Shown in pieces: positions 1 to 8,666 of a DNA stretch of 8,666 nt (position 1 is the stretch's first letter; each line of letters starts with the position of its first letter). Source of the DNA: Collinsella sp. Its GTDB lineage: Bacteria; Actinomycetota; Coriobacteriia; Coriobacteriales; Coriobacteriaceae. The translations under genes were made by a program, and so were the position numbers. Below the pieces are notes generated by a model. That model had not been told where the DNA came from. It worked only from the letters and a program-made list of their open reading frames with translations, and ran no database searches. The stretch spans positions 1-8,666 of the forward strand of contig JAIJJM010000067.1 of NCBI GenBank assembly GCA_022728415.1. The letters are read 5' to 3'.

Positions 1-129
1 CTGGCGTGGCACTCAGAAAACTGGACCCCACCCTCCACATGGAAAGAAGGTGTCGCCGGCGTCCTGATGGATATGGTGCTCGGCGTGATCGCCAAGATCG
101 CCACGCCCTGGCAGCAGAAGAAGAACTAG
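1..129 (+). CDS. C-terminal fragment, probable ABC transporter permease of the NitT/TauT (SsuC-like) family
   Basis: Only the last 42 codons lie in the window, in frame 1, ending with TAG at 127-129. The tail is a hydrophobic helix (about residues 20-34 of the fragment, AGVLMDMVLGVIAKI) followed by TPWQQKKN. An Asp-xx-Leu helix leading into a Pro-Trp and a basic end resembles the C-terminus of SsuC/TauC-type permeases. It is too short for a firm family call. The stop lies six bases before the start of an ABC ATPase of the matching class, and the ribosome-binding site of that gene overlaps this stop codon, so the two are surely co-transcribed. That context is the main reason for calling it a permease. 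Two tryptophans in the first half (WHSENW) are unusual for such a tail. A different membrane protein is possible. Confidence 0.45.
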   Translation: MAWHSENWTPPSTWKEGVAGVLMDMVLGVIAKIATPWQQKKN

Positions 130-135
130 GAGGGC

Positions 136-909
136 ATGATGTCTCACGAGCTTTCGATTGCAGACCTTAACAAGGACTTTTCCATCAAGGGCGAGACGCG
201 CCACGTGCTCGACCATATCGACCTTGATATCCGCGCCGGCGAGTTTTTGGTCATCGTGGGCCACTCCGGCTGCGGCAAGTCCACGCTGCTCAAGATCATC
301 GCCGGACTCGAGCATCCCACGACGGGTACCGTCGCGCTCGACGGCAAGCCTGTGACCGGCCCCGGCCCCGACCGGACCATGATCTTTCAGGAGCACCGCC
401 TGTTTCCCTGGATGAGCATCCGCGACAACGTTGAGTTTGGCCTGCGCGGACGGTCCGATTCCGAGCGCTCCCAGATCTCGAGCCGCCTGCTCAAGACCGT
501 CGACCTGGAAGAGTTCGCGGACGCGTACCCGGCACAGCTTTCGGGCGGCATGTCGCAGCGCGCCGCCATCGCCCGCGCCTTGGCGACTAATCCCGAGATT
601 CTGCTGCTCGACGAGCCCTTTGGCGCGCTCGATGCCTTTACCAAGATGGAGCTGCAGGAGGAGCTGCTGCGCATCCACGCCGAGCAGGGCGGCACTATGG
701 CCATGGTGACCCACGATATCGAGGAGGCCGTGTACCTGGCCGACCGTATCGTGGTCATGTCGAGCCGACCCGGCAAGATCGAGGAGATCGTCGAGGTGCA
801 GCTGGGCCGCCCGCGCGACCGCGGCAGCGCCGACTTTGCCTGGTACAAGAAACGTGTGTACGACCATTTCATCAAGTCGAAACAAAAGGGACCCGAATAC
901 GTTATCTAA
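136..909 (+). CDS. ABC transporter ATPase, NitT/TauT/SsuB class
   Basis: This is the cytoplasmic ATP-hydrolysing subunit of an importer, 257 residues, full length for the family. Visible motifs are Walker A GHSGCGKST (42-50), the Q-loop glutamine in FQEHRLFPW (Q85), the signature LSGGMSQR (135-142), Walker B ILLLDEP (155-161), the D-loop GALD (163-166) and the H-loop histidine in VTHDIEEA (H193). The FQEHRLFPW stretch and the THDIEEAVYLADRIVVMSSRPG block are typical of SsuB, TauB and NrtD, which serve sulfonates, taurine or nitrate. The start may be ATG 136 or ATG 139. An AGGAGGG ribosome site at 128-134 sits too close to 136 and slightly better for 139. It follows the probable permease by six bases. 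Location beside methionine and sulfite genes favours a sulfur compound as substrate, but the ATPase alone cannot show this. Confidence 0.9.
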   Translation: MMSHELSIADLNKDFSIKGETRHVLDHIDLDIRAGEFLVIVGHSGCGKSTLLKIIAGLEHPTTGTVALDGKPVTGPGPDRTMIFQEHRLFPWMSIRDNVEFGLRGRSDSERSQISSRLLKTVDLEEFADAYPAQLSGGMSQRAAIARALATNPEILLLDEPFGALDAFTKMELQEELLRIHAEQGGTMAMVTHDIEEAVYLADRIVVMSSRPGKIEEIVEVQLGRPRDRGSADFAWYKKRVYDHFIKSKQKGPEYVI

Positions 910-984: not shown

Positions 985-2259
985 ATGACCGAACCGAGCG
1001 ACGAGCGCATCGACGGCATGCGCTTTGAGACGGCGCTGCTCCACGCGCGCCGCCGCGAGCCGTTCGCCGTGGAGTCGACGACGCCGCCGATCTACCAGAC
1101 GAGCGCCTATGCGTTCGATGAGGAGGAGCGTCACGCCGCGGTGGCAGGCGGGCGTGCGCCGGGCTACGTGTATACGCGCCTGGGCAACCCCACCGTTGCG
1201 GCGTTCGAGCGTCGCATGGCGGCGCTGGAGGGCGGCTTTGCGGCCGTCGCCACCGCCTCGGGCATGGCGGCGATCTTCAACGCCGTCTCCAACGTGCTGC
1301 GCGCGGGGGACAAGATCGTGGCGGGTGCCTGCCTGTACGGCGGCACGCTCGAGCTGTTCGAAAGTCTGCGCGACTTTGGTATCGAGACCGTCTATGTTTC
1401 CGAGCTGACACCGGACACGTTGGAGCAGGCGATTGACGAGCGCACCAAGCTCGTCTTTGCCGAGACCATCTCGAATCCCAAGCTCGAAGTGCTCGATATC
1501 GCCGCTATTGCCGAGGTCGCCCACGTGCGCGGCATTGGCCTGGTGGTCGACAACACCGTGGCGACGCCGTATCTGTGTCGCCCGCTCGACCTGGGTGCCG
1601 ACGTGGTCGTTGAGTCCTCGAGCAAGTACATCAACGGTCACAGCAATGCCATCAGCGGCGTGGTGATCGATTCGGGCCGCGGTCCGTGGGATCCGCAGCG
1701 CTACCCGTCCATGGCCAAGTGGGCCAAGTTTCGCAACATGGCCTATACGGTCAAGCTGCGTCAGGGACTGTTCCGCGATACCGGCGCGTGCCTGTCGCCG
1801 CAAAACGCGTTTCTCAACTGTACGGGCATCGAGACGCTCGCCCTGCGCATGGAGCGCGCCTGCGCGAACGCCCAAGGCCTTGCCGAATGGTTCGCGTCGA
1901 GCGGCCACGATGTCGAGGTCGACTATCCGGGTCTGCCCTCGCACCCAGGTCATGACTTGGCCGCGCGTCAGTTTGGCGGCCGCGGCTTTGGCGCGCTCAT
2001 GTCGATCCGCGTGGGCTCCCAGGAGCGTGCGTTCAAGGTTATCAACGGCGTCAAGTTGCCGCTGCGCGTAAGCAACATCGGCGACACCAAGACGCTCATC
2101 ACGCATCCTGCGACAACTGTTTTCGCCGACAATTCGCCGCAGGAGCAACAGGCGGCAGGCGTGTGGCCCGATACGATTCGCCTATCGATCGGGATCGAGG
2201 ACCTCGCCGACCTTATCGAGGATTTCGAGCGGTCGCTCACCGCCGCCGATCAAGCATAG
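985..2259 (+). CDS. metY: O-acetylhomoserine sulfhydrylase (homocysteine synthase), PLP-dependent
   Basis: This cytoplasmic pyridoxal-phosphate enzyme of the Cys/Met metabolism family makes homocysteine from O-acetylhomoserine and sulfide or a protein-bound thiocarboxylate. From ATG 985 it has 424 residues, normal for MetY. Landmarks are YTRLGNPT (63-70, phosphate-contacting Tyr/Arg), ASGMAA (91-96), the stacking Tyr in LYGGT (Y118), the cofactor-binding Asp in VVDNTVATP (D189) and the Schiff-base lysine in SSSKYINGH (K214). Near the C-terminus, SNIGDTKTLITHPAT followed by RLSIGIED is the pattern of O-acetylhomoserine sulfhydrylases rather than cystathionine synthases. The first 12 residues are charged and unconserved. 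The stop lies 13 bases before the sulfite reductase start. That pairing, plus the downstream carrier-protein genes, points to the protein-thiocarboxylate version of the reaction. Free sulfide use cannot be excluded. Confidence 0.93.
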   Translation: MTEPSDERIDGMRFETALLHARRREPFAVESTTPPIYQTSAYAFDEEERHAAVAGGRAPGYVYTRLGNPTVAAFERRMAALEGGFAAVATASGMAAIFNAVSNVLRAGDKIVAGACLYGGTLELFESLRDFGIETVYVSELTPDTLEQAIDERTKLVFAETISNPKLEVLDIAAIAEVAHVRGIGLVVDNTVATPYLCRPLDLGADVVVESSSKYINGHSNAISGVVIDSGRGPWDPQRYPSMAKWAKFRNMAYTVKLRQGLFRDTGACLSPQNAFLNCTGIETLALRMERACANAQGLAEWFASSGHDVEVDYPGLPSHPGHDLAARQFGGRGFGALMSIRVGSQERAFKVINGVKLPLRVSNIGDTKTLITHPATTVFADNSPQEQQAAGVWPDTIRLSIGIEDLADLIEDFERSLTAADQA

Positions 2260-2272
2260 AAGGGGAACTGGT

Positions 2273-3187
2273 ATGGCAAAGATCAACAATGCCGCACTCA
2301 AAAAGGGCGGTTTTATGGCCCAGAAGCAGAAGGGGTACTACAGCCTTCGCCTGCGCGTGGTGGCCGGGCATATGACGGCCGAGCAGCTGCGTGTCGTGGC
2401 TGAGGTGGCCGAAAAGTGCGGTCACGGCTACATCCACAACACAAGTCGCCAGTCCATCGAGATTCCCTGGATCAACGTGGAGGATGCCGAGGAGGTCAAG
2501 GCCGTGCTTGCCCAGGGCGGCGTGGAGCCGGGCTGCTGCGGCGCGCGCGTCCGCACGGTGACGGGCTGCCAGGGCTGCGTGTCGTGTCCTTCGGGCAACA
2601 TCGACAGCTTTGCCGTCGCCAACGAGCTCGACGAGCGCTATTTTGGCCGCGACCTGCCCGGTAAGTTTAAGTTTGGCGTGACCGGTTGCCAAAACAACTG
2701 CCTGAAGGCCGAGGAGAACGACATGGGCATCAAGGGCGGCCGCAAGGTCACCTGGATTCCCGACGCGTGCATCCACTGCGGCATCTGCTCCAAGGTGTGC
2801 TCGTTTGATGCCATCAGCGACGACGGCGAGACGCTCACGGTGGACTACGACAAGTGCGCAAGCTGCGGCAAGTGCTCGCAGAAGTGCCCGGTCGACGCTT
2901 GGGAGACCCAGCCGGTCTACAACGTGTGCTTTGGTGGCCTGTTTGGCAACCACATTACCAAGGCCAAGTCGTTCCTTCCGCCCATCGAGAGCGACGAGCA
3001 GCTCATCGCCGTGGCGGATGCCGCGATCCAGTGGTTCGACGACCACGCCAAGGCCGGCGATCGCTTTAAGTTCACGCTCGATCGCGAGGGCTGGGAGGGC
3101 ATGGTCGAGGCCGTGACCGCTGCCTACAACGAGCATGCGCCCAAGCCGGGCGAGCCCATCAAGCCGCTGGTCGGCACTGATAAATAA
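2273..3187 (+). CDS. Small siroheme sulfite reductase with two ferredoxin clusters (AsrC-like)
   Basis: This cytoplasmic protein of 304 residues belongs to the nitrite/sulfite reductase family and probably reduces sulfite to sulfide with six electrons. The siroheme-bridging [4Fe-4S] site is visible as C99-x5-C105 and C139-x3-C143 (TGCQNNC). Two ferredoxin-type clusters follow: C166/C169/C172/C176 and C195/C198/C201/C205, the last ending in Cys-Pro. An extra Cys pair at 88-89 (PGCCGA) precedes the siroheme site. The size and domain order match AsrC-type and other compact anaerobic reductases, not the long CysI type. No AsrA/AsrB electron-transfer partners are in the window. Start ATG 2273 has an AGGGG site eight bases upstream. 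An in-frame ATG at 2315 is less likely. Nitrite reduction is a possible alternative, but the MetY and sulfur-carrier neighbours favour sulfite. Confidence 0.9.
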   Translation: MAKINNAALKKGGFMAQKQKGYYSLRLRVVAGHMTAEQLRVVAEVAEKCGHGYIHNTSRQSIEIPWINVEDAEEVKAVLAQGGVEPGCCGARVRTVTGCQGCVSCPSGNIDSFAVANELDERYFGRDLPGKFKFGVTGCQNNCLKAEENDMGIKGGRKVTWIPDACIHCGICSKVCSFDAISDDGETLTVDYDKCASCGKCSQKCPVDAWETQPVYNVCFGGLFGNHITKAKSFLPPIESDEQLIAVADAAIQWFDDHAKAGDRFKFTLDREGWEGMVEAVTAAYNEHAPKPGEPIKPLVGTDK

Positions 3188-3220
3188 GTTGACGCGGCGG
3201 GGTTGCACCCATGCCGTCTA

Positions 3221-3230
3221 AGGAAGGAGG
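3221..3230 (+). promoter_or_regulatory. Strong ribosome-binding site of the TusA gene
   Basis: AGGAAGGAGG sits five bases before ATG 3236 and decides that start over an upstream in-frame TTG at 3203. The site is followed at once by CCTCC, giving the palindrome GGAGGCCTCC at 3226-3235, which could partly mask it in RNA. Confidence 0.65.
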
Positions 3231-3235
3231 CCTCC

Positions 3236-3490
3236 ATGGCCCAGGAAGAGATTGCATTTGACGACGAGGTCGATATCACCGACGCCGTCTGCCCCATGAC
3301 GTTTGTGCGCGCGAAGGCCGCCATCGAGGAGCTCGAGATCGGCCAGGTGCTCAAGGTGCACCTCAACGAGGGCGAGCCCATGCAAAACGTGCCGCGCTCG
3401 CTTAAGGATGACGGCCAGCAGGTACTGCGCCTGGCGCCGTCGGACGAGGGCACGTTTGACCTGTACGTTAAGAAGCTCGTGGACGAGTAA
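3236..3490 (+). CDS. tusA: TusA-family sulfur carrier protein
   Basis: This is a small cytoplasmic protein of 84 residues with the SirA/TusA fold pattern. It has a beta strand and then Cys-Pro (C19-P20 in DAVCPMTFVRAK), followed by an amphipathic helix and the segment IGQVLKVHLNEGEPMQNVPRSLKDDGQQVL. The Cys of Cys-Pro carries a persulfide in TusA proteins and passes sulfur to partners. The gene lies 48 bases after the sulfite reductase and 11 bases before a thioredoxin gene, so it may take sulfur leaving the reductase and hand it on to the ThiS-like carrier encoded further down. This is inference: TusA proteins also serve tRNA thiolation and sulfur oxidation. No second conserved Cys is present. 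The start is fixed by an unusually strong ribosome site. Confidence 0.88.
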   Translation: MAQEEIAFDDEVDITDAVCPMTFVRAKAAIEELEIGQVLKVHLNEGEPMQNVPRSLKDDGQQVLRLAPSDEGTFDLYVKKLVDE

Positions 3491-3494
3491 GGAG
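3491..3494 (+). promoter_or_regulatory. Ribosome-binding site choosing the thioredoxin start
   Basis: GGAG directly after the TusA stop codon is seven bases before ATG 3502 but only one base before ATG 3496. This favours the start at 3502. Confidence 0.5.
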
Positions 3495-3501
3495 AATGAC
3501 G

Positions 3502-3822
3502 ATGGCAGAGAGAATCGACGCCGCTTCGTTTGAGGAACGTGTGCTCAAGGCGGACAAGCCGGTGCTCGTTGATTTTTATTCGGATACCTGCATTCCGTGT
3601 AAGCGCTTAAACCCGCAGCTTGCCAAGCTGGAGGAGGCCCGCGTCGGCGAACTCGACGTGGTGAAGGTCAATATCAACTTCGACACGCAGGTGGCCGTTG
3701 ACAACGGCGTCATGGCGGCGCCCACGCTCGTGCTGTTCCAGGGCGGCAAGGAGGCCGGTCGCACGGTGGGCTTTAAGGCGCTCAAAGAGCTCGAGGAGTT
3801 TATCGATGGGGCGCTCGCCTAG
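3502..3822 (+). CDS. Thioredoxin-fold protein with atypical CIPC active site
   Basis: This cytoplasmic protein of 106 residues has the size and order of a classical thioredoxin: PVLVDFYSDTC (20-30), the redox pair C30-I-P-C33, and the cis-proline loop at P74 (AAPTLVLF), ending with GFKALKELEEFID. The usual active site is WCGPC. Here the Trp is Thr and the Gly is Ile (TCIPC), so redox potential and partner choice are probably not those of housekeeping thioredoxin. Sitting between the TusA gene and the ThiS-like carrier gene, it may release sulfur from the TusA persulfide or keep a cysteine of the pathway reduced. That role is inferred from position only. No signal peptide is present. It follows TusA by 11 bases. 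Confidence 0.88.
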   Translation: MAERIDAASFEERVLKADKPVLVDFYSDTCIPCKRLNPQLAKLEEARVGELDVVKVNINFDTQVAVDNGVMAAPTLVLFQGGKEAGRTVGFKALKELEEFIDGALA

Positions 3823-3871
3823 GGCCCTGTCTGAGCGGGTCTGCAAGGGCTCGGATACGTAATTACTTCGT

Positions 3872-3878
3872 AGGAAGG
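3872..3878 (+). promoter_or_regulatory. Ribosome-binding site choosing the ThiS-like start
   Basis: AGGAAGG abuts ATG 3879 with no spacer and lies nine bases before ATG 3888. The second ATG, giving MKINVGGK, is therefore the likely start and matches the normal N-terminus of ThiS-type proteins. Confidence 0.55.
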
Positions 3879-3887
3879 ATGCCAATC

Positions 3888-4094
3888 ATGAAGATCAATG
3901 TCGGCGGCAAGCAGAAAGAATACGACGAGGGCCTGACCGTGACGCAGCTCGTAGCGGCCGAGAATGTCGAGACGCCCGAGTACGTGACCGTGTCGGTCAA
4001 CGACGAGTTCGTGGACCACAAGGACTTCGACAGCCGCGTGCTCAACGATGGCGACACGGTTGAGTTTCTCTACTTCATGGGCGGTGGCTGCTAA
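3888..4094 (+). CDS. hcyS: ThiS/MoaD-like sulfur carrier ending in Gly-Gly-Gly-Cys (HcyS-like)
   Basis: This is a beta-grasp, ubiquitin-like carrier of 68 residues. It begins MKINVGGKQKEYDEG, continues with a helix TVTQLVAAENV and a strand EYVTVSVNDEFV, and ends DGDTVEFLYFMGGGC. The DGD-x-VEFLY-x-MGGG block is the hallmark of ThiS-type carriers, whose C-terminal glycine is adenylated and then converted to a thiocarboxylate. In ThiS the protein stops at Gly-Gly. Here one cysteine (C68) follows, so the carrier should be inactive until trimmed. A ThiF-like E1 gene and a JAMM protease gene follow, as in the Wolinella HcyS/HcyF/HcyD system for homocysteine, where as I recall the cap is alanine. 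No thiG, thiH or moaE is nearby, which argues against thiamin or molybdopterin. The symbol is by analogy. Confidence 0.85.
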   Translation: MKINVGGKQKEYDEGLTVTQLVAAENVETPEYVTVSVNDEFVDHKDFDSRVLNDGDTVEFLYFMGGGC

Positions 4095-4200
4095 AAAAGT
4101 TCCCTAAGCACCGCACCTTGGCCCTCAAGCCGTCGCTTGCGTACATTTAAGTACGCGGCGCTCCTCTTTCGCGGCAACCTGCGGCACCTGGAACATTTTT
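4093..4200. repeat. Nested inverted-repeat element in the gap between carrier and E1 genes
   Basis: The 147-base gap at 4095-4241 contains ordered complementarity. The ends AAAAAAGTTCC (4093-4103) and GGAACATTTTT (4190-4200) match at 10 of 11 positions. Inside, CCGCA (4111-4115) pairs with TGCGG (4180-4184). Two hairpins lie within: CTTGG/TCAAG (4117-4129, one wobble pair) and a longer one with stem GCGTAC/GTACGC, loop ATTTAA, extended by CGC/GGCG through a bulge (4134-4160). The left end overlaps the hcyS stop codon. No T-run follows the strong hairpin, so it is not a standard terminator. It may be a structured RNA, an attenuator, or a small mobile inverted-repeat element. The A/T ends make chance more likely. 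The remaining 41 bases hold only the hcyF ribosome site. Confidence 0.35.
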
Positions 4201-4241
4201 AGCCGATCCCCGTTTCTCTTCAGTTTTAAGGGAGCTATCGC

Positions 4242-5078
4242 ATGGCTTTTTCGAATGAACAGCTTGAGCGCTATTCGCGCCACATCATCTTGAAGGAGGT
4301 TGGCGTCAAGGGGCAAAAGAAGCTCCTGAATGCCCGCGTCCTTATTATCGGCGCTGGCGGCCTGGGCGCACCGGCGGCCCTGTACCTGGCTGCTGCCGGC
4401 GTGGGCACCATCGGTATTGTCGATGCCGACGAGGTCGATCTTTCCAACCTGCAGCGTCAGGTGATCCATGCCACGTCCAACATCGGCGAGCCTAAGGTGG
4501 AAAGCGCCAAGGAGACGATGGAGGACATCAACCCCGACGTCACGGTCAACACCTACCAGGAGTTCGTCGACTCCACCAACATCGCCGACTTGATCGCCGA
4601 CTACGACTTTGTGATCGACGGCGTGGATAACTTTCCCACGAAGTTTCTCATCAACGACGCCTGCGTTATGGCCAAGAAGCCCTTTGTGCACGCGGGTATC
4701 ATCCGCTTTAAGGGCCAGCTCATGACCTATGTGCCGGGCGAGGGTCCGTGCTACCGCTGCGTCTTTAAGACCATGCCGCCCAAGGACGCCGTGCCCACGT
4801 GCAAGCAGGCGGGCGTCATCGGCGCCATGGCGGGTGTCATTGGCTGCCTGGAGGCGCTCGAGGCTATCAAGTACATCTTGGGCATCGGCAACCTGCTGAC
4901 GGGCAAGCTGCTCACCTATGATGCGCTGGCGGGCGATTTCCATACCATCAAGCTGCCGCCGGCAGACCCCAATTGCGCCATCTGCGGCGAGCATCCGACC
5001 ATCACCGAGCTGATCGACTACGAGCAGCCCGAGTGCGCCGACGCCGTGCATGGTGCGAGCCTGAAGGCGGGGGAGTAG
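4242..5078 (+). CDS. hcyF: ThiF/MoeB/HesA-family E1-like adenylyltransferase (HcyF-like)
   Basis: This cytoplasmic enzyme of 278 residues activates the C-terminal glycine of a ubiquitin-like sulfur carrier with ATP. Visible features are the opening RYSRHIILKEVG (10-21, with the ATP-contacting Arg), the nucleotide loop GAGGLG (37-42), IVDADEVDLSNLQRQ (59-73), the DGVDNF motif (D129) and two zinc-binding pairs, C170-x2-C173 (CYRC) and C245-x2-C248 (CAIC). C187 in PTCKQAGVIG is at the place of the catalytic or sulfur-transfer Cys of MoeB/ThiF. There is no C-terminal rhodanese domain, so sulfur must come from another protein, for example the TusA neighbour or the reductase. Start ATG 4242 has AAGGGAG seven bases upstream. 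Only two bases separate its stop from the protease gene. MoeB or ThiF function is the alternative, but no matching pathway genes are present. Confidence 0.88.
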   Translation: MAFSNEQLERYSRHIILKEVGVKGQKKLLNARVLIIGAGGLGAPAALYLAAAGVGTIGIVDADEVDLSNLQRQVIHATSNIGEPKVESAKETMEDINPDVTVNTYQEFVDSTNIADLIADYDFVIDGVDNFPTKFLINDACVMAKKPFVHAGIIRFKGQLMTYVPGEGPCYRCVFKTMPPKDAVPTCKQAGVIGAMAGVIGCLEALEAIKYILGIGNLLTGKLLTYDALAGDFHTIKLPPADPNCAICGEHPTITELIDYEQPECADAVHGASLKAGE

Positions 5079-5080
5079 CG

Positions 5081-5533
5081 ATGCCGCGCGTGGAGAAGCT
5101 GCTGCTTGCGGCTGCCGACTACGATCGCATCGTGGCGCATGCCAAGGAGGGTCTGCCCAACGAAGCATGCGGTCTGATTGCCGGCACGGTGGCCGGCGAG
5201 GACGAGGCAGCAGTGGGTATCGTCGAGCATGTGTACCTGCTTACCAATATCGACGAGAGTAACGAGCACTTTTCGATGAATCCGCGCGAGCAGCTCGCGG
5301 CCGTTAAGGACGCGCGCGCCCATGGCTGGGAGATGCTCGGCAACTGGCATTCGCACCCCGAGAGCCCGTCGCGTCCCTCCGAGGAGGACAAGCGCCTGGC
5401 GTTTGACTCGACGGCGGCGTATCTGATTCTGTCACTGATGGATTCCGAGCATCTGGTGCTCAACGCCTTCCATGTTGAACACGACAAGCAGGTTGCCCGC
5501 GTGCCGCTCGAGGTTGTTGAGGCAAAGGCGTGA
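5081..5533 (+). CDS. hcyD: JAMM/MPN+ zinc metalloprotease, M67 family (HcyD-like)
   Basis: This is a cytoplasmic Mov34/MPN-domain peptidase of 150 residues. The complete JAMM zinc site is visible: catalytic Glu E28 in NEACGLIAG, then H90-S-H92-P, seven residues on S100, and D103 (H-x-H-x7-S-x2-D). Free-standing bacterial JAMM proteins of this size trim residues beyond the diglycine of ubiquitin-like carriers. The obvious substrate is the carrier ending in Gly-Gly-Gly-Cys encoded two genes upstream, whose last cysteine must be removed before adenylation. In Wolinella the equivalent protease, HcyD, removes a terminal residue from HcyS. I chose ATG 5081, which has GGGGGAG upstream and gives the normal N-terminus. 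An in-frame reading back to 4973 overlaps the E1 gene and is not credible. The stop overlaps the next gene by four bases. Confidence 0.87.
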   Translation: MPRVEKLLLAAADYDRIVAHAKEGLPNEACGLIAGTVAGEDEAAVGIVEHVYLLTNIDESNEHFSMNPREQLAAVKDARAHGWEMLGNWHSHPESPSRPSEEDKRLAFDSTAAYLILSLMDSEHLVLNAFHVEHDKQVARVPLEVVEAKA

Positions 5534-6402
5534 CAGACGCTTTGACCGAGATGTCGGGTGCGGCTGGCGCGGTGACGCCGCATGAGGTCAGTCGCGTGGA
5601 CGCCGTCGTGTTTGCCGCCTATGGCACCACGCGTGCCCGGGCGCGCACGGCGGCGATCGAGCCCGCGTTTCGTGCGGTGGCCGATGCCGTTGACGTACCG
5701 TGCGAGCTGGCTTTTTGTGGCCCGGCGGTGTGCCGGCTTTTGGCTCGCCGTGGTGAGCCTGCGCCCGAGTTGGGGCGCGTGCTGGAGCAGGTCGCTGACG
5801 CCGGCGCGCGCAGGGTTGCCATCGTGTCCGGTATGGTTGTCGACGGATGGGCCCAAGCCAGCCTGCGTGAGCGCGTCGGTGTCGTGGCTGAGCGCTTGGG
5901 GCTGGAGGCCGTCGTCGGTGTCCCGCTCCTGTCCGATGCTGCTGACGTGGATTGTCTTGCCGCGGCGCTTATGGGGGAGTGGCGGCCTAAGCCTGGGACC
6001 GTGACCCTCTTTGTAGGCCATGGCATTGGCGGGCCGGCGGGCAGCGGCTATGTGCGGTCCCGTGATGCGTTTGATGCGTACGGGTCGCTTGGAGCGGCGT
6101 TTGCCCGCGCCGGTCGTGATGACTTGGCGGTGGCCTGTCTGTCGGATGGCCCAAGCGCTGCCCTGCAGACTGTTCGCGGGCTTGCCGAGCCGGGTTCGAC
6201 GGTGCGGCTGGTGCCGCTGATGCTTTCCGCCGGACGCCATGTGCTCAAGAATATCGGTGGCTTGGATGACCGCTCATGGTCGAGTGTGCTCGCGGCTGCA
6301 GACTATGTCCCGCAGCTTTGCGATTGTGGCCTGGGCGAGGTTGCCACCGTACGGGAACTGTATGCGCACCATGCACGTGCGCTGTTCGCCACGAACGAAT
6401 AG
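5530..6402 (+). CDS. cbiK: CbiK-type sirohydrochlorin chelatase (cobalt or iron)
   Basis: This anaerobic class II chelatase of 290 residues inserts Co2+ (cobalamin route) or Fe2+ (siroheme route) into sirohydrochlorin. Similarity to CbiK is seen in VVFAAYGTT (26-34), VGVPLLS (129-135), FVGHG with metal-ligand His H164, and VPLMLSAGRHVLKNI with the second His H237, then DDRSW and CGLGE near the end. From a remembered alignment, the Glu that completes the metal site in Salmonella CbiK seems replaced (about S205). A Cys-Asp-Cys at 264-266 is unusual. No signal peptide is present, so it is cytoplasmic, unlike the periplasmic Desulfovibrio form. The GTG start overlaps the protease stop as GTGA, with GAGG seven bases upstream, so translation is coupled. 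ATG 5551 is an alternative start. Neighbours suggest siroheme supply to the sulfite reductase, or metal/tetrapyrrole handling with the importer. Confidence 0.82.
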   Translation: MTDALTEMSGAAGAVTPHEVSRVDAVVFAAYGTTRARARTAAIEPAFRAVADAVDVPCELAFCGPAVCRLLARRGEPAPELGRVLEQVADAGARRVAIVSGMVVDGWAQASLRERVGVVAERLGLEAVVGVPLLSDAADVDCLAAALMGEWRPKPGTVTLFVGHGIGGPAGSGYVRSRDAFDAYGSLGAAFARAGRDDLAVACLSDGPSAALQTVRGLAEPGSTVRLVPLMLSAGRHVLKNIGGLDDRSWSSVLAAADYVPQLCDCGLGEVATVRELYAHHARALFATNE

Positions 6403-6430
6403 AAGAGAAGAAAGAACAGAAAGTATAACG

Positions 6431-7519
6431 ATGAAGAAGACCCATTTGGTACGACCCATGATGGCCGGTGCTACGCTTGCGCTCGCCGCTGTTTTGAGCC
6501 TGGGCTTGAGCGCCTGCGGCGCGACCGGTTCCTCGGCAAATAGCGGTTCTGCAGCGGGCTCTGCTGTCCCGTCGTCAGACGCCGGCAAATCCTCGGCTTC
6601 GACTTCGACTGACGATAAGGTCGCCAAGTCGGTCGATCTTAAGATCGCCGAGGATGGCGCGGTGAGTTTTACCGATGACCTGGGCAACACCGTTACCGTC
6701 AAGAAGCCTAAGCATGTCGTGGCCTGCATGGGCAGCTTTGCCAACGCTTGGGAGCTCGCAGGCGGCGAGCTCGCCGCCGCGACCGACGATGCCTATGAGA
6801 ACTATGGCGTCGATGCCGACAAGGTGGCATCGGTGGGCCGTTCCACGTCGTTGTCGCTCGAGTCCATCATGGCTCAGGACCCTGACTTTGTGATCGCTAC
6901 CGGCCTTTCGGATGGCAAGCACTCCACGGGCGTTTCGCAATCCGACCTTAAGAGCGCCCTCGATGCGTCCGAGATTCCCTGTGCGTTCTTTAAGGTCACC
7001 ACGTTCGACGACTATCTGCGCATGCTCCGCATCTTTACCGCCATCACGGGTCGCGATGACCTGTATCAGAAGAACGGCCTCGATGTTCAGGCCTCGATTA
7101 AAAAGGCCGTCAAAAAGTACAGCGTTTCCGACAAGAAGCCGCGTGTGCTGGTGATGAGCTCGTACTCCAAGGGCGTCACCGCGCAGGATTCCACCGGTAT
7201 GACGGGCGCAATGGTCAAGGAATTGGGTGCGACCAACGTGTGCGACGAGAGCCCGAGTGCGCTCACGGACTTTAGCATCGAGTCGATCGCCGCACTCGAT
7301 CCGGATTATATTTTTGTGCTGTCCGTCGGCGCTGATGCAAAGGCCGCCGAGCGCAACTTTGCGCAGTCCGTGGAGTCCAATCCTGCCTGGAGCGAGCTCT
7401 CGGCCGTTAAAGCAGGCAACTACAAGGTGCTCGACAGCGCGCATTTTATGTCGAAGCCCAATGCCAAATGGGATGAGTCCTATACGATTCTGGGCAAGGC
7501 GCTGGCCAAGATGAACTAG
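6431..7519 (+). CDS. Substrate-binding lipoprotein of a Fe-siderophore/heme/cobalamin ABC importer
   Basis: This is an extracellular binding protein of 362 residues, anchored by lipid. Residues 1-28 form a lipoprotein signal peptide (basic MKKTHLVR, hydrophobic core) with lipobox LSAC and lipidated C29. A Ser/Ala/Thr-rich linker (about 31-66) follows, typical of Gram-positive lipoproteins. From about residue 78, VSFTDDLGNTVTVKKPKHVV opens a class III periplasmic-binding-protein domain (FepB/BtuF family). Later hallmarks are MAQDPDFVIATG, ELGATNVCDE, IAALDPDYIFVLSVG and a C-terminal HFMSKPNAKWDESYTILGKAL. Ligand choice among ferric siderophore, heme and corrinoid cannot be read from the sequence. 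It starts 28 bases after the chelatase gene, with only a weak purine-rich ribosome site (around AGAAAG, 6418-6423). The in-frame reading back to 6239 lies inside the chelatase gene and would hide the signal peptide. Confidence 0.9.
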   Translation: MKKTHLVRPMMAGATLALAAVLSLGLSACGATGSSANSGSAAGSAVPSSDAGKSSASTSTDDKVAKSVDLKIAEDGAVSFTDDLGNTVTVKKPKHVVACMGSFANAWELAGGELAAATDDAYENYGVDADKVASVGRSTSLSLESIMAQDPDFVIATGLSDGKHSTGVSQSDLKSALDASEIPCAFFKVTTFDDYLRMLRIFTAITGRDDLYQKNGLDVQASIKKAVKKYSVSDKKPRVLVMSSYSKGVTAQDSTGMTGAMVKELGATNVCDESPSALTDFSIESIAALDPDYIFVLSVGADAKAAERNFAQSVESNPAWSELSAVKAGNYKVLDSAHFMSKPNAKWDESYTILGKALAKMN

Positions 7520-7528
7520 GGGGTTTGC

Positions 7529-8578
7529 ATGCGTAAGACGAGTTCGAACGGGGCGGGGAGCGCGCTGTCGCACGCACGTCGCCGTGTCGTCCGCCTGTTT
7601 GCCGGGTTTGTCGTGGCGCTGGTTGTCGTTGCCGTCGTCTCGTTTTGCATGGGCCCCAGCTCGGTTTCGATCGGCGATATTGCCGCCTTTGCGACGGGCG
7701 CCCCCGTGGACGCGACCGTCGCCAATATCATCGTGAATATCCGCATGCCCCGCGTCGTCGCCGGTCTTGTTGCCGGCGCGGCGCTTTCTGTTGCCGGCGC
7801 GCTCATTCAGGCGGTACTCGACAACCCGTTGGCGAGCCCGAGTGTGATCGGCATCAACTCGGGTGCGGGCCTGGCCGTGCTTGCCGTCTCGGCCTGCCCG
7901 TTGTTCTATAACGATCCGCCGCGCGAGCTGCTGCCGCTCGTTGCCTTTGTGGGCGCGCTTGTCGCGGCCGGGCTCGTGTTTGCCATCTCGGCGCGTGCCG
8001 GCGTGTCGCGTCTGACGGTGGTGCTTTCGGGCGTAGCGATTAACGCCGTGGCCGGTGCCGGCATGAACACCGTACTGTTAGTGGCACCGAACGTGTACGT
8101 GGGGTCGTCGGCATACTTGGTCGGCGGCTTCTCGGGCGTGCTCATGCGCAACCTGATGCTGCCGGCGTTGCTGGCGGTATGCGGCATGGTGGTGGCGTTT
8201 TGCCTGGCGAACCGCCTGAATGTGCTGTCGCTCGGTCGCGAAGCTGCCCATGGCCTGGGCATGCGTACAGTGGCGGTGCGTTTGGCGGCGCTGGCGGTGG
8301 CGGCACTGCTCGCGGGCTGCGCGGTGAGCTTTGGCGGCTTGATCGGCTTTGTGGGCCTGATGGTGCCCCATGCGGTTCGCCGCCTTGCGGGCCACGACAA
8401 CCGCGTGGTCATTCCGCTGTGCGCAATGTGCGGCGCGGCGTTTACCGTTCTGTGCGATACCGTCGCACGCACGGCTTTTGCGCCCTACGAACTGCCGGTG
8501 GGCATTTTGCTGTCGCTGGTGGGCGGACCGTTCTTTATCTACCTGATTATGGCACGAAAGGGGTTCCGCGATGAGTGA
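7529..8578 (+). CDS. FecCD/BtuC-family ABC transporter permease
   Basis: This is an integral membrane subunit of 349 residues, the normal length of this family, with a short basic cytoplasmic N-terminus (1-22) and about nine or ten hydrophobic segments. Family landmarks are IRMPRVVAGLVAGAALSVAGALIQ read as two parts (71-80 and 81-94), NPLASPSVIGINSGAG (99-114), SLGREAAHGLGM (234-245, the loop that contacts the ATPase), IGFVGLMVPHAVRRLAGHD (272-290) and ELPVGI with GGPFF (321-336). It forms the channel through which the ligand of the preceding lipoprotein enters. Start ATG 7529 has AGGGGG five bases upstream, beginning in the previous stop codon. The last eight bases overlap the ATPase gene. 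Iron-siderophore, heme and cobalamin permeases look alike, so the substrate is open. Confidence 0.94.
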   Translation: MRKTSSNGAGSALSHARRRVVRLFAGFVVALVVVAVVSFCMGPSSVSIGDIAAFATGAPVDATVANIIVNIRMPRVVAGLVAGAALSVAGALIQAVLDNPLASPSVIGINSGAGLAVLAVSACPLFYNDPPRELLPLVAFVGALVAAGLVFAISARAGVSRLTVVLSGVAINAVAGAGMNTVLLVAPNVYVGSSAYLVGGFSGVLMRNLMLPALLAVCGMVVAFCLANRLNVLSLGREAAHGLGMRTVAVRLAALAVAALLAGCAVSFGGLIGFVGLMVPHAVRRLAGHDNRVVIPLCAMCGAAFTVLCDTVARTAFAPYELPVGILLSLVGGPFFIYLIMARKGFRDE

Positions 8579-8666
8579 GCGTGAGGTGCCGGGGGCGGGC
8601 GCGTCGGGCGCTGGCGTGGCGGCGGGCGCGGCCGTTGAGCTGCGTGATGTTCGCTTTGCCTATGGT
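8571..8666 (+). CDS. N-terminal fragment of ABC importer ATPase (FecE/BtuD-like)
   Basis: The first 32 codons are present and the gene runs off the window. ATG 8571 overlaps the end of the permease gene by eight bases and has GAAAGGGG seven bases upstream (8556-8563). The reading is an Ala/Gly-rich leader of about 21 residues and then VELRDVRFAYG, the standard first strand and aromatic A-loop of ABC ATPases. As third gene after a binding lipoprotein and FecCD permease, it is almost surely the energising subunit of the same importer. Walker motifs lie outside the window, so this rests on the opening motif and context. Confidence 0.8.
   Translation, partial: MSEREVPGAGASGAGVAAGAAVELRDVRFAYG

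What the first reader, a model, noticed from the sequence alone, without database searches (positions are those of the whole stretch)
985..5533. Complete candidate protein-thiocarboxylate homocysteine pathway in one run of genes
MetY, sulfite reductase, a capped ThiS-like carrier, an E1-like enzyme and a JAMM protease occur consecutively with no thiamin or molybdopterin genes among them. This matches the Wolinella HcyS/HcyF/HcyD/MetY set, but apparently in a high-GC anaerobic Gram-positive organism. It suggests that homocysteine is made from carrier-bound sulfur rather than free sulfide. The gene families are seen in the sequence, the pathway is known from Wolinella, and its operation here is inferred.
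Basis: partly seen in the sequence, partly recalled or inferred. Interest (0 to 1): 0.8.

Follow-up and report, generated by a model that had tools for sequence, protein, structure and literature searches.

The report
Homocysteine operon with capped sulfur carrier
A bacterium of the Coriobacteriia, probably from a gut, carries a gene set that very probably makes homocysteine, the precursor of methionine, from sulfur held on a small carrier protein; the set is of a known kind, but its relatives suggest that one protease prepares carriers for two pathways and that the sulfur can come from two quite different suppliers.

Summary
Confirmed. At 985-5533 seven intact genes lie head to tail: MetY, sulfite reductase, TusA, thioredoxin, a ThiS-like carrier (HcyS) ending FMGGG-C, an E1-like enzyme without rhodanese (HcyF) and a JAMM protease (HcyD). 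The neighbourhood was described in 2006 (Iyer et al., row 4e) and its chemistry is credited to Wolinella (2011). It is a new member in Coriobacteriia, not a new system. Relatives support the reading: HcyF is 74-86% identical in 80 loci of five phyla; all 82 HcyS genes found in 85 loci end GGG plus 1-16 residues; the four nearest genomes have no full-length ThiG and no MoaE; main-type cluster MetYs form their own clade.

Two things appear new. (1) Thiamin ThiS is capped, or fused to ThiG, in 7 of 11 genomes with an HcyD-type protease and in 0 of 38 without, so HcyD probably decaps ThiS too, cutting after the third glycine. (2) The module sits beside sulfite reductase (25 of 51 loci), an encapsulin with cysteine desulfurase (16), both (6) or neither (4).

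Against: two close relatives lack MetY in the cluster, and all eight Coriobacteriales genomes checked have other enzymes of MetY's family. Carrier dependence is inferred.

The parts
1..129 (+). C-terminal 42 codons of an ABC permease (SsuC-like), cut by the window edge
   Evidence: Open frame ending at 127-129; no Pfam hit on this short piece. Identity inferred from the permease (PF00528) in the same place in relative G210 (L102)
136..909 (+). ABC importer ATPase, SsuB/TauB/NtrD type; substrate unresolved (sulfonate, taurine or nitrate class)
   Evidence: PF00005; NCBIfam ntrCD 264.5, SaoA 256, TauB 238, SsuB 221 bits, all below cut-off; conserved upstream in L005, L046, G210
985..2259 (+). 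MetY, O-acetylhomoserine sulfhydrylase-type PLP enzyme
   Evidence: PF01053 407 bits; TIGR01326 453 bits, below its 495 cut-off; in one clade with the other main-type cluster MetYs
2273..3187 (+). Single-chain sulfite reductase (siroheme type by family) with an inserted 2[4Fe-4S] ferredoxin domain
   Evidence: PF03460, PF01077, Fer4; nearest PDB sequence is the C-terminal half of F420-dependent sulfite reductase 7np8
3236..3490 (+). TusA/SirA-like sulfur relay protein with CPMT in place of the usual CPxP (usual motif recalled)
   Evidence: PF01206; CPxTFV in 82 of 82 aligned relatives
3496..3822 (+). Thioredoxin with active site CIPC
   Evidence: PF00085; C[IV]PC in 53 of 55 aligned relatives
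3888..4094 (+). HcyS, ThiS-like sulfur carrier, 68 aa, capped
   Evidence: PF02597, TIGR01683; nearest PDB 2k5p/3cwi, labelled ThiS
4089..4091 (+). Cap codon (Cys) after the GGG tail; predicted HcyD cut between Gly (4086-4088) and Cys
   Evidence: GGG plus 1-16 residues in 82 of 82 HcyS genes and 120 of 120 listed homologues; all 42 uncapped thiamin ThiS read end exactly at GGG
4090..4203 (.). Mostly intergenic palindromic element between HcyS and HcyF, 14-nt terminal inverted repeats
   Evidence: Arms 4090-4103 and 4190-4203, 93% complementary; fold z-score -2.07 for 4080-4245; no Rfam match; in 82 relatives the two genes overlap or lie within 27 nt
4242..5078 (+). HcyF, E1-like adenylyltransferase without rhodanese domain
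   Evidence: PF00899 299 bits; first CxxC and the PTC cysteine kept in 87 of 87 aligned rows, second CxxC in all variants listed
5081..5533 (+). HcyD, JAMM/JAB metalloprotease, motif E...HSHPx7S..D
   Evidence: PF14464; HxH...D motif in 80 of 83 relatives; nearest PDB 2kks, E 7e-40
5530..6402 (+). CbiK-like chelatase, proposed to metallate sirohydrochlorin for the sulfite reductase
   Evidence: PF06180 60.5 bits, above cut-off; NCBIfam CbiK 64 bits, far below its cut-off of 400
6431..7519 (+). Substrate-binding protein (lipoprotein by my reading of its N-terminus) of an iron/heme/cobalamin-type ABC importer
   Evidence: PF01497
7529..8578 (+). FecCD/BtuC-type ABC permease
   Evidence: PF01032 281 bits
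8571..8666 (+). Start of the importer's ATPase, cut by the window edge
   Evidence: ATG at 8571; identity inferred from the ATPase in this place in relatives

Best explanation
This is a protein-thiocarboxylate homocysteine operon. An importer brings in a sulfur compound (sulfonate or sulfite class, inferred) and the ferredoxin-fused sulfite reductase makes sulfide. HcyD removes the Cys cap of HcyS after the third glycine. HcyF adenylates the exposed GGG end, which receives sulfur as sulfide or as a TusA persulfide reduced by thioredoxin, giving HcyS-COSH. MetY joins this to O-acetylhomoserine, and HcyD cuts again to release homocysteine and recycle HcyS. CbiK and the downstream importer probably supply siroheme. 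Shown: genes, order, conserved residues, a cap in every HcyS examined, co-inheritance, absence of ThiG/MoaE in the nearest genomes. Inferred: every reaction, the order of sulfur transfer and the imported compound.
For: Intact gene set. A related set in 80 loci of five phyla, HcyF 74-86% identical; all seven genes in the window's order in 21 of 51 full-flank loci, TusA-HcyS-HcyF-HcyD in 44 of 51. 82 of 82 HcyS genes found in 85 loci end GGG plus 1-16 residues, and so do 120 of 120 listed of 1726 homologues. HcyD metal motif in 80 of 83, HcyF cysteines conserved. The nearest genomes G001, G002, G181 and G210 have no MoaE and no full-length ThiG. Main-type cluster MetYs form a clade (SH-aLRT 99, quick tree) that excludes eight out-of-cluster Coriobacteriales enzymes and other paralogues (clade named after seeing the tree). 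Relatives place sulfate transporter, AprA, CysD and CysN, or haem-synthesis genes, upstream of MetY. Thiamin ThiS is capped only where an HcyD-type JAMM exists, which supports decapping.
Against: No biochemistry. G181 and G210 carry the module without MetY or Trx. All eight Coriobacteriales genomes checked have other full-length PF01053 enzymes, so free sulfide could be used elsewhere. MetY scores below its NCBIfam cut-off, and its best PDB hits are other sulfhydrylases, ahead of 3ri6 (3ri6 recalled as the Wolinella enzyme). HcyS and HcyF pass generic ThiS, ThiF and MoeB models. In 70 of 82 relatives the HcyS and HcyF genes overlap, and all 11 caps of five residues or more run over the HcyF start, so part of the cap's variety may come from gene overlap; the window has no overlap. 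Wolinella HcyS/F/D could not be compared. The window's own genome is not held, and completeness of the relatives' genomes is not given.
Confidence: 0.8

Rival explanations
1. MetY makes homocysteine from free sulfide made by the sulfite reductase, while HcyS/F/D deliver sulfur to another acceptor (tRNA, cysteine, cluster assembly) or act as a ubiquitin-like tag.
For: G181 and G210 keep Sir-TusA-HcyS-HcyF-HcyD without MetY; 10 of 51 full-flank loci have no main-type MetY nearby; other PF01053 enzymes are present in all eight genomes checked; MetY resembles ordinary sulfhydrylases in the PDB.
Against: Main-type MetY lies with the module in 41 of 51 full-flank loci; main-type cluster MetYs form their own clade; the four genomes with a MetY at E up to 1e-100, of 395 in the order, all carry HcyF.
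Confidence: 0.13
2. The carrier is a thiamin or molybdopterin carrier that happens to lie here.
For: The carrier passes the NCBIfam ThiS model and HcyF passes ThiF and MoeB models; thiamin ThiS can also be capped.
Against: 12 of 23 genomes with an HcyF relative lack full-length ThiG and 20 of 23 lack MoaE; 10 lack both, among them the four nearest relatives. Completeness of these genomes is not given.
Confidence: 0.03
3. The product is chiefly cysteine: MetY acts on O-acetylserine, or the carrier feeds a cysteine synthase as CysO does in mycobacteria.
For: TIGR01326 covers O-acetylserine too; CysK lies directly upstream of MetY in Konateibacter (L034).
Against: No cysteine synthase among the window's genes; main-type MetY is near the module in 41 of 51 loci. 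CysK was not counted over the loci.
Confidence: 0.1
4. Same pathway, but the direct donor to HcyF is a TusA persulfide, not free bisulfide as reported for Wolinella (recalled).
For: A distinctive CPxTFV TusA (82 of 82 aligned) is present in 48 of 51 loci; 16 of 51 loci have an encapsulin with cysteine desulfurase in place of sulfite reductase, whose product is a persulfide; thioredoxin is found in 35 of 51.
Against: No direct test; TusA may serve another step. The Sir/desulfurase complementarity cannot be shown once relatedness is allowed for.
Confidence: 0.4

Closest known systems
Protein-thiocarboxylate methionine pathway of Wolinella succinogenes (HcyS/HcyF/HcyD/MetY/Sir; Krishnamoorthy and Begley 2011)
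   Same: Same gene families: capped ThiS-like carrier, E1-like enzyme, JAMM protease, MetY, sulfite reductase. The paper itself is not held; it is seen here only as cited in PMC6225789 and PMC5764234 (passages), and its details are recalled.
   Different: Cap is Cys after GGG, not Ala (Ala recalled). No sulfate-activation genes in the window; instead an SsuB-type importer upstream and CbiK plus an iron/haem/B12-type importer downstream. Host is a coriobacterium.
Row 4e sulfur-metabolism neighbourhoods of Iyer et al. 2006 (PMC1779556, passages read)
   Same: [quoted passage not shown] low-GC Gram-positives and two actinobacteria were listed.
   Different: Coriobacteriia, CbiK and the encapsulin link are not in the passages read; the ThiS of their actinobacterial cases is fused to sulfite reductase.
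CysO/CysM/Mec+ cysteine pathway of Mycobacterium tuberculosis (recalled)
   Same: Carrier thiocarboxylate, PLP enzyme, JAMM release.
   Different: No CysM-type enzyme among the window's genes; MetY stands in its place.
Family 2A encapsulin with cysteine desulfurase cargo (Andreas and Giessen 2021, PMC8346489, passages read)
   Same: The shell (PF19307) and desulfurase found beside the carrier module in relatives are of this kind.
   Different: Not in the window. The passages read name serine O-acetyltransferase and rhodanese as partners; 'MoaD', 'homocysteine' and 'JAMM' have 0 occurrences in its main text.

Membership tests
Wolinella-type HcyS/HcyF/HcyD/MetY pathway | ThiS-like carrier with residues beyond the terminal glycines | tested here: met
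   FMGGG-C in the window; 82 of 82 HcyS in relatives are capped
Wolinella-type HcyS/HcyF/HcyD/MetY pathway | JAMM protease with intact metal site next to the carrier | tested here: met
   PF14464, HSHPx7S..D
Wolinella-type HcyS/HcyF/HcyD/MetY pathway | E1-like adenylyltransferase without rhodanese | tested here: met
   ThiF domain over residues 11-246 of 278, no rhodanese hit
Wolinella-type HcyS/HcyF/HcyD/MetY pathway | MetY and sulfite reductase in the same run of genes | tested here: met
Wolinella-type HcyS/HcyF/HcyD/MetY pathway | Sulfate-activation and reduction genes in the cluster (recalled for Wolinella) | tested here: not met
   None in the window; present in relative G022 (L103: AprA, CysD, CysN and a sulfate-type ABC ATPase). 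An accessory feature, not decisive
Wolinella-type HcyS/HcyF/HcyD/MetY pathway | Orthology of the four proteins to the Wolinella ones | tested here: inconclusive
   Only 3ri6 (recalled as Wolinella MetY) could be reached: 307 bits, sixth in the list
Wolinella-type HcyS/HcyF/HcyD/MetY pathway | Cap removal, thiocarboxylate and HcyS-homocysteine adduct | not testable with these tools
   Needs protein chemistry
Iyer 2006 row 4e neighbourhood | Carrier, JAB, E1 without rhodanese, SirA/TusA, sulfur-metabolism genes | tested here: met
Thiamin ThiS | ThiG partner | tested here: not met
   No full-length ThiG in the nearest genomes G001, G002, G181, G210; the window's own genome is not held
Molybdopterin MoaD | MoaE partner | tested here: not met
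   No MoaE in G001, G002, G181, G210; 3 of 23 genomes with a hit, best E 1.3e-6
Mycobacterial CysO pathway | CysM-type cysteine synthase beside the carrier | tested here: not met
   None among the window's genes

The most novel reading that the evidence does not exclude
The HcyS/HcyF/HcyD/TusA module is an exchangeable sulfur-to-homocysteine adaptor of gut anaerobes. It takes sulfur as a persulfide either from sulfite reductase (as in the window) or from a cysteine desulfurase packed in a Family 2A encapsulin, which in the second case gives a direct cysteine-to-homocysteine route without cystathionine. Its protease HcyD has become the shared maturation enzyme of a second pathway: where HcyD is present, the thiamin carrier ThiS itself can acquire a cap, or be fused to ThiG, and must then be cut by HcyD before thiamin can be made.
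Probability: 0.35. Interest if true: 0.78.

Novelty: new member of a known kind. Interest (0 to 1): 0.5.

Why it matters
Automated pathway tools often misjudge which bacteria can make their amino acids. PMC5764234 (passages) notes that in November 2017 the thiocarboxylate route was absent from MetaCyc and KEGG. The gene order and cap rule described here would let annotators recognise the route in Coriobacteriia, Lachnospiraceae, Ruminococcus, Fibrobacter and Treponema. The cap rule (cut after the third glycine), the shared-protease prediction for thiamin ThiS and the encapsulin link are each testable with simple protein chemistry. They would show a ubiquitin-like precursor-processing step serving two metabolic pathways in bacteria.

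Tried and rejected
Thiamin or molybdopterin carrier: rejected on genome content of relatives. A riboswitch linking the operon to methionine: no Rfam match in the window at E up to 1; in 28 relative loci only a group I intron and a tRNA. Promoters and terminators: one promoter-like site on the - strand (shuffles 1.1) and one terminator-like site (shuffles 4.6). The window's own genome or species: not held; family- and order-wide searches gave no MetY above 60% identity (one search scored at most four candidates a genome). Protein clusters show near-identical copies (MetY 98%, HcyS 99-100%) but no species name. Plasmid origin: all 389 plasmid records matching HcyF are below 60% identity. Cluster MetYs labelled by distance to HcyF: one clade was rejected by the AU test (p 8e-45). 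One search shows why: the label took in five distant paralogues next door (four Fibrobacter, one Clostridia, 34-36% identical) and left out three main-type MetYs cut off by the encapsulin segment. The clade that I report was read from the tree afterwards. The MoaDE1Rhd tally was discarded because that query cross-matches HcyF, and its MetY tally (45 of 51) was replaced (41 of 51), because it counted paralogues. In one search the TusA query was out of frame; TusA numbers come.

Dropped rows. MetY tree: six hits left out for length (L013, L023, L046, L059, L078 and one in L062), and four of the twelve out-of-cluster loci (L123, L125, L128, L131) because my frame picker took a wrong frame. Thiamin test: 49 genomes with a readable ThiS were used. 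Left out were five loci without one (L119, L134, L156, L164, L175; two of these genomes, G017 and G477, have an HcyD-type JAMM) and three ThiG hits for which no locus was made (G551, G487, G537). Weak JAB hits (E 2.8e-6 to 9.7e-4; G422, G436, G461, G468, G579, G553, G503, G519; four of them over Pfam's cut-off) were counted as absent; none matched the window's HcyD at E 1e-8. Nine of the eleven JAMM-bearing genomes had been chosen because they carry the cluster. Loci L108 and L109 repeat the genomes of L046 and L005: dropped, kept.
Full report
What is there. The window holds, all on the + strand: the end of an ABC permease, its SsuB-type ATPase (136-909), MetY (985-2259), a sulfite reductase (2273-3187), TusA (3236-3490), thioredoxin (3496-3822), a ThiS-like carrier (3888-4094), an E1-like enzyme (4242-5078), a JAMM protease (5081-5533), a CbiK-like chelatase (5530-6402), and a binding protein, FecCD permease and the start of an ATPase (6431-8666). 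GC is 62.5% and third-position GC 0.70-0.86. NCBIfam names alone would mislead: the carrier passes ThiS, and the E1 passes a MoeB and the ThiF model.

Who carries it. HcyF is 74-86% identical in the 80 best GTDB loci, whose titles name Ruminococcus, Lachnospiraceae, Fibrobacter, Treponema, Succinivibrionaceae and Olsenella among others (427 relatives were found, 80 kept). In 51 of these loci with at least 6.9 kb before and 5 kb after the HcyF start, HcyS is found in 49, HcyD in 50, TusA in 48, main-type MetY in 41, Trx in 35, Sir in 31; all seven stand in the window's order in 21. In a tree of 58 HcyF rows the window groups with Coriobacteriia only (7 rows, support 99, starred; rows from G001 and G002 are present twice). 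Within the order of G001 the trait is sporadic: HcyF of 60% identity or more in 8 of 247 genomes, and MetY at E up to 1e-100 in 4 of 395, all four with HcyF.

Is it the known pathway. Iyer et al. 2006 (PMC1779556, passages) describe this class of neighbourhood, with SirA always present and an E1 lacking rhodanese, in Wolinella, Geobacter and several Gram-positives. PMC6225789 and PMC5764234 (passages) cite Krishnamoorthy and Begley 2011 for thiocarboxylate-dependent methionine synthesis in Wolinella; that paper is not held, so the Ala cap, bisulfide as donor and the double role of HcyD are recalled. The active-site signature holds across relatives: HcyD HxH...D in 80 of 83, HcyF first CxxC and PTC cysteine in 87 of 87, Trx C[IV]PC in 53 of 55, TusA CPxTFV in 82 of 82. 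The last departs from the usual CPxP (recalled).

The cap. All 82 HcyS genes found in 85 loci end FMGGG plus 1-16 residues: 51 with one residue, 20 with two; three loci have no HcyS hit. All 120 listed homologues of 1726 are capped too. Near-identical carriers differ in the cap (C, CC, CY). So a cap is always there but its sequence is free, as expected of a piece that is cut off. The window's genes do not overlap, yet it is capped.

Partner test. Of 23 genomes with an HcyF relative, 12 lack full-length ThiG (only fragments of about 50-100 residues match), 20 lack MoaE and 10 lack both. These include all four nearest relatives, one of which (G210) has the cluster on a 3.0-Mb contig. Completeness of the genomes is not given. 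In the other 11, real ThiG is present.

MetY. The tree (quick, 78 rows) puts the main-type cluster MetYs, the window's included, in one clade (SH-aLRT 99) that excludes eight out-of-cluster Coriobacteriales enzymes and 14 low-identity paralogues of the relatives. This was read after seeing the tree; the label set beforehand by distance was rejected as one clade (AU p 8e-45). Against strict coupling, G181 and G210 have Sir-TusA-HcyS-HcyF-HcyD without MetY or Trx, while PF01053 genes about 40% identical lie elsewhere in their genomes.

Sulfur supply. In the 51 full-flank loci, 25 have sulfite reductase only, 16 an encapsulin with cysteine desulfurase only, 6 both, 4 neither. In L031, the one studied closely, the encapsulin is PF19307 (308 bits) with PDB hits 8t6r and SrpI 6x8m; its neighbour is a cysteine desulfurase with about 200 extra N-terminal residues, and a second JAMM and a ThiS-ThiF-rhodanese fusion come before. 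Sir and encapsulin avoid each other (Fisher p 3e-5), but the labels follow kinship and tree-based pairs are too few to test. Other relatives put a sulfate-type ABC transporter, AprA, CysD and CysN (L103, G022), sulfate ABC genes (L072), CysK (L034, Konateibacter) or HemC, HemB and HemL (L001, Ruminococcus) upstream of MetY. In the window that place is taken by the SsuB-type importer, whose substrate the family models do not settle. No paper in the library held both 'encapsulin' and 'thiocarboxylate', and the five hits hold 'encapsulin' 0 times (listing only).

A shared protease. In genomes with the cluster I noticed that thiamin ThiS beside ThiG is often capped. I then sampled 60 Lachnospiraceae and 117 genomes of the order of G003 for ThiG, read the ThiS tails and searched for Prok-JAB. 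With an HcyD-type JAMM: 7 of 11 ThiS capped or fused to ThiG (G003 C, G006 CGTSL..., G008 AC, G009 fused, G010 SGA, G013 R, G418 Q), 4 uncapped (G004, G011, G016, G424). Without: 0 of 38. On the ThiG tree the cap needs 7 changes; starred independent pairs go the predicted way in 2.8 of 3 on average, too few for significance (median p 0.25). All 42 uncapped ThiS end at GGG, which places the cut after the third glycine. Searches showed no report of this (listings only; one search is a weak search, since 'ThiS' also matches the word 'this').

Small features. Between HcyS and HcyF the window has 147 nt with 14-nt terminal inverted repeats (fold z -2.07), where 82 relatives range from an overlap of 17 nt to a gap of 27 nt. 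No riboswitch was found.

Verdict. A new member of a known kind in Coriobacteriia, with good support for the pathway and no direct proof of carrier dependence. The added value lies in the cap rule, the shared-protease prediction and the exchangeable supply module.

Noticed in passing
L031:2362-6962, and encapsulin plus desulfurase genes in 22 of 51 full-flank relative loci: A Family 2A encapsulin shell and a cysteine desulfurase with a long N-terminal extension lie near the carrier operon; in L031 a second JAMM and a ThiS-ThiF-rhodanese fusion come directly before them.
   Followed up: partly
L110, L112, L113, L114, L115, L117, L141 (thiamin loci): Thiamin ThiS carries a C-terminal cap, or is fused to ThiG, only in genomes (of 49 read) that have an HcyD-type JAMM protease.
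   Followed up: yes
window 4090-4203: Palindromic element with 14-nt terminal inverted repeats splits HcyS from HcyF; in 82 relatives these genes overlap or lie within 27 nt. Possibly a small mobile repeat or an attenuator.
   Followed up: partly
L006, L029, L031, L039, L040, L042, L045, L054, L055, L060, L078: The HcyS reading frame runs 14-17 nt into the HcyF gene, so the longest caps are encoded by DNA that also encodes the start of HcyF.
   Followed up: partly
L071:14531-14872: A group I intron (Rfam RF00028, 70.8 bits) lies just after a ThiF-family reading frame that looks like TcdA (the name is my reading, no call gave it).
   Followed up: no
L102 (G210) and L101 (G181): Close relatives have the sulfite reductase and carrier module without MetY and thioredoxin in the cluster.
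   Followed up: partly
L103 (G022): A run of sulfate-type ABC genes, AprA, CysD, CysN, MetY, Sir, TusA, HcyS, HcyF, HcyD: a likely sulfate-to-homocysteine operon in another Coriobacteriales genome.
   Followed up: partly
window 5530-8666: A CbiK-like chelatase followed by an iron/haem/B12-type importer is next to the operon in G001, G002, G181 and G210 only among the loci compared; its metal and substrate are unknown.
   Followed up: no
P0121 and P0001: The window's MetY is 98% identical to a protein cluster of 705 member sequences, yet none of 395 genomes held in the order of G001 gave a MetY above 60% identity, which hints at an accessory region of a common species.
   Followed up: no
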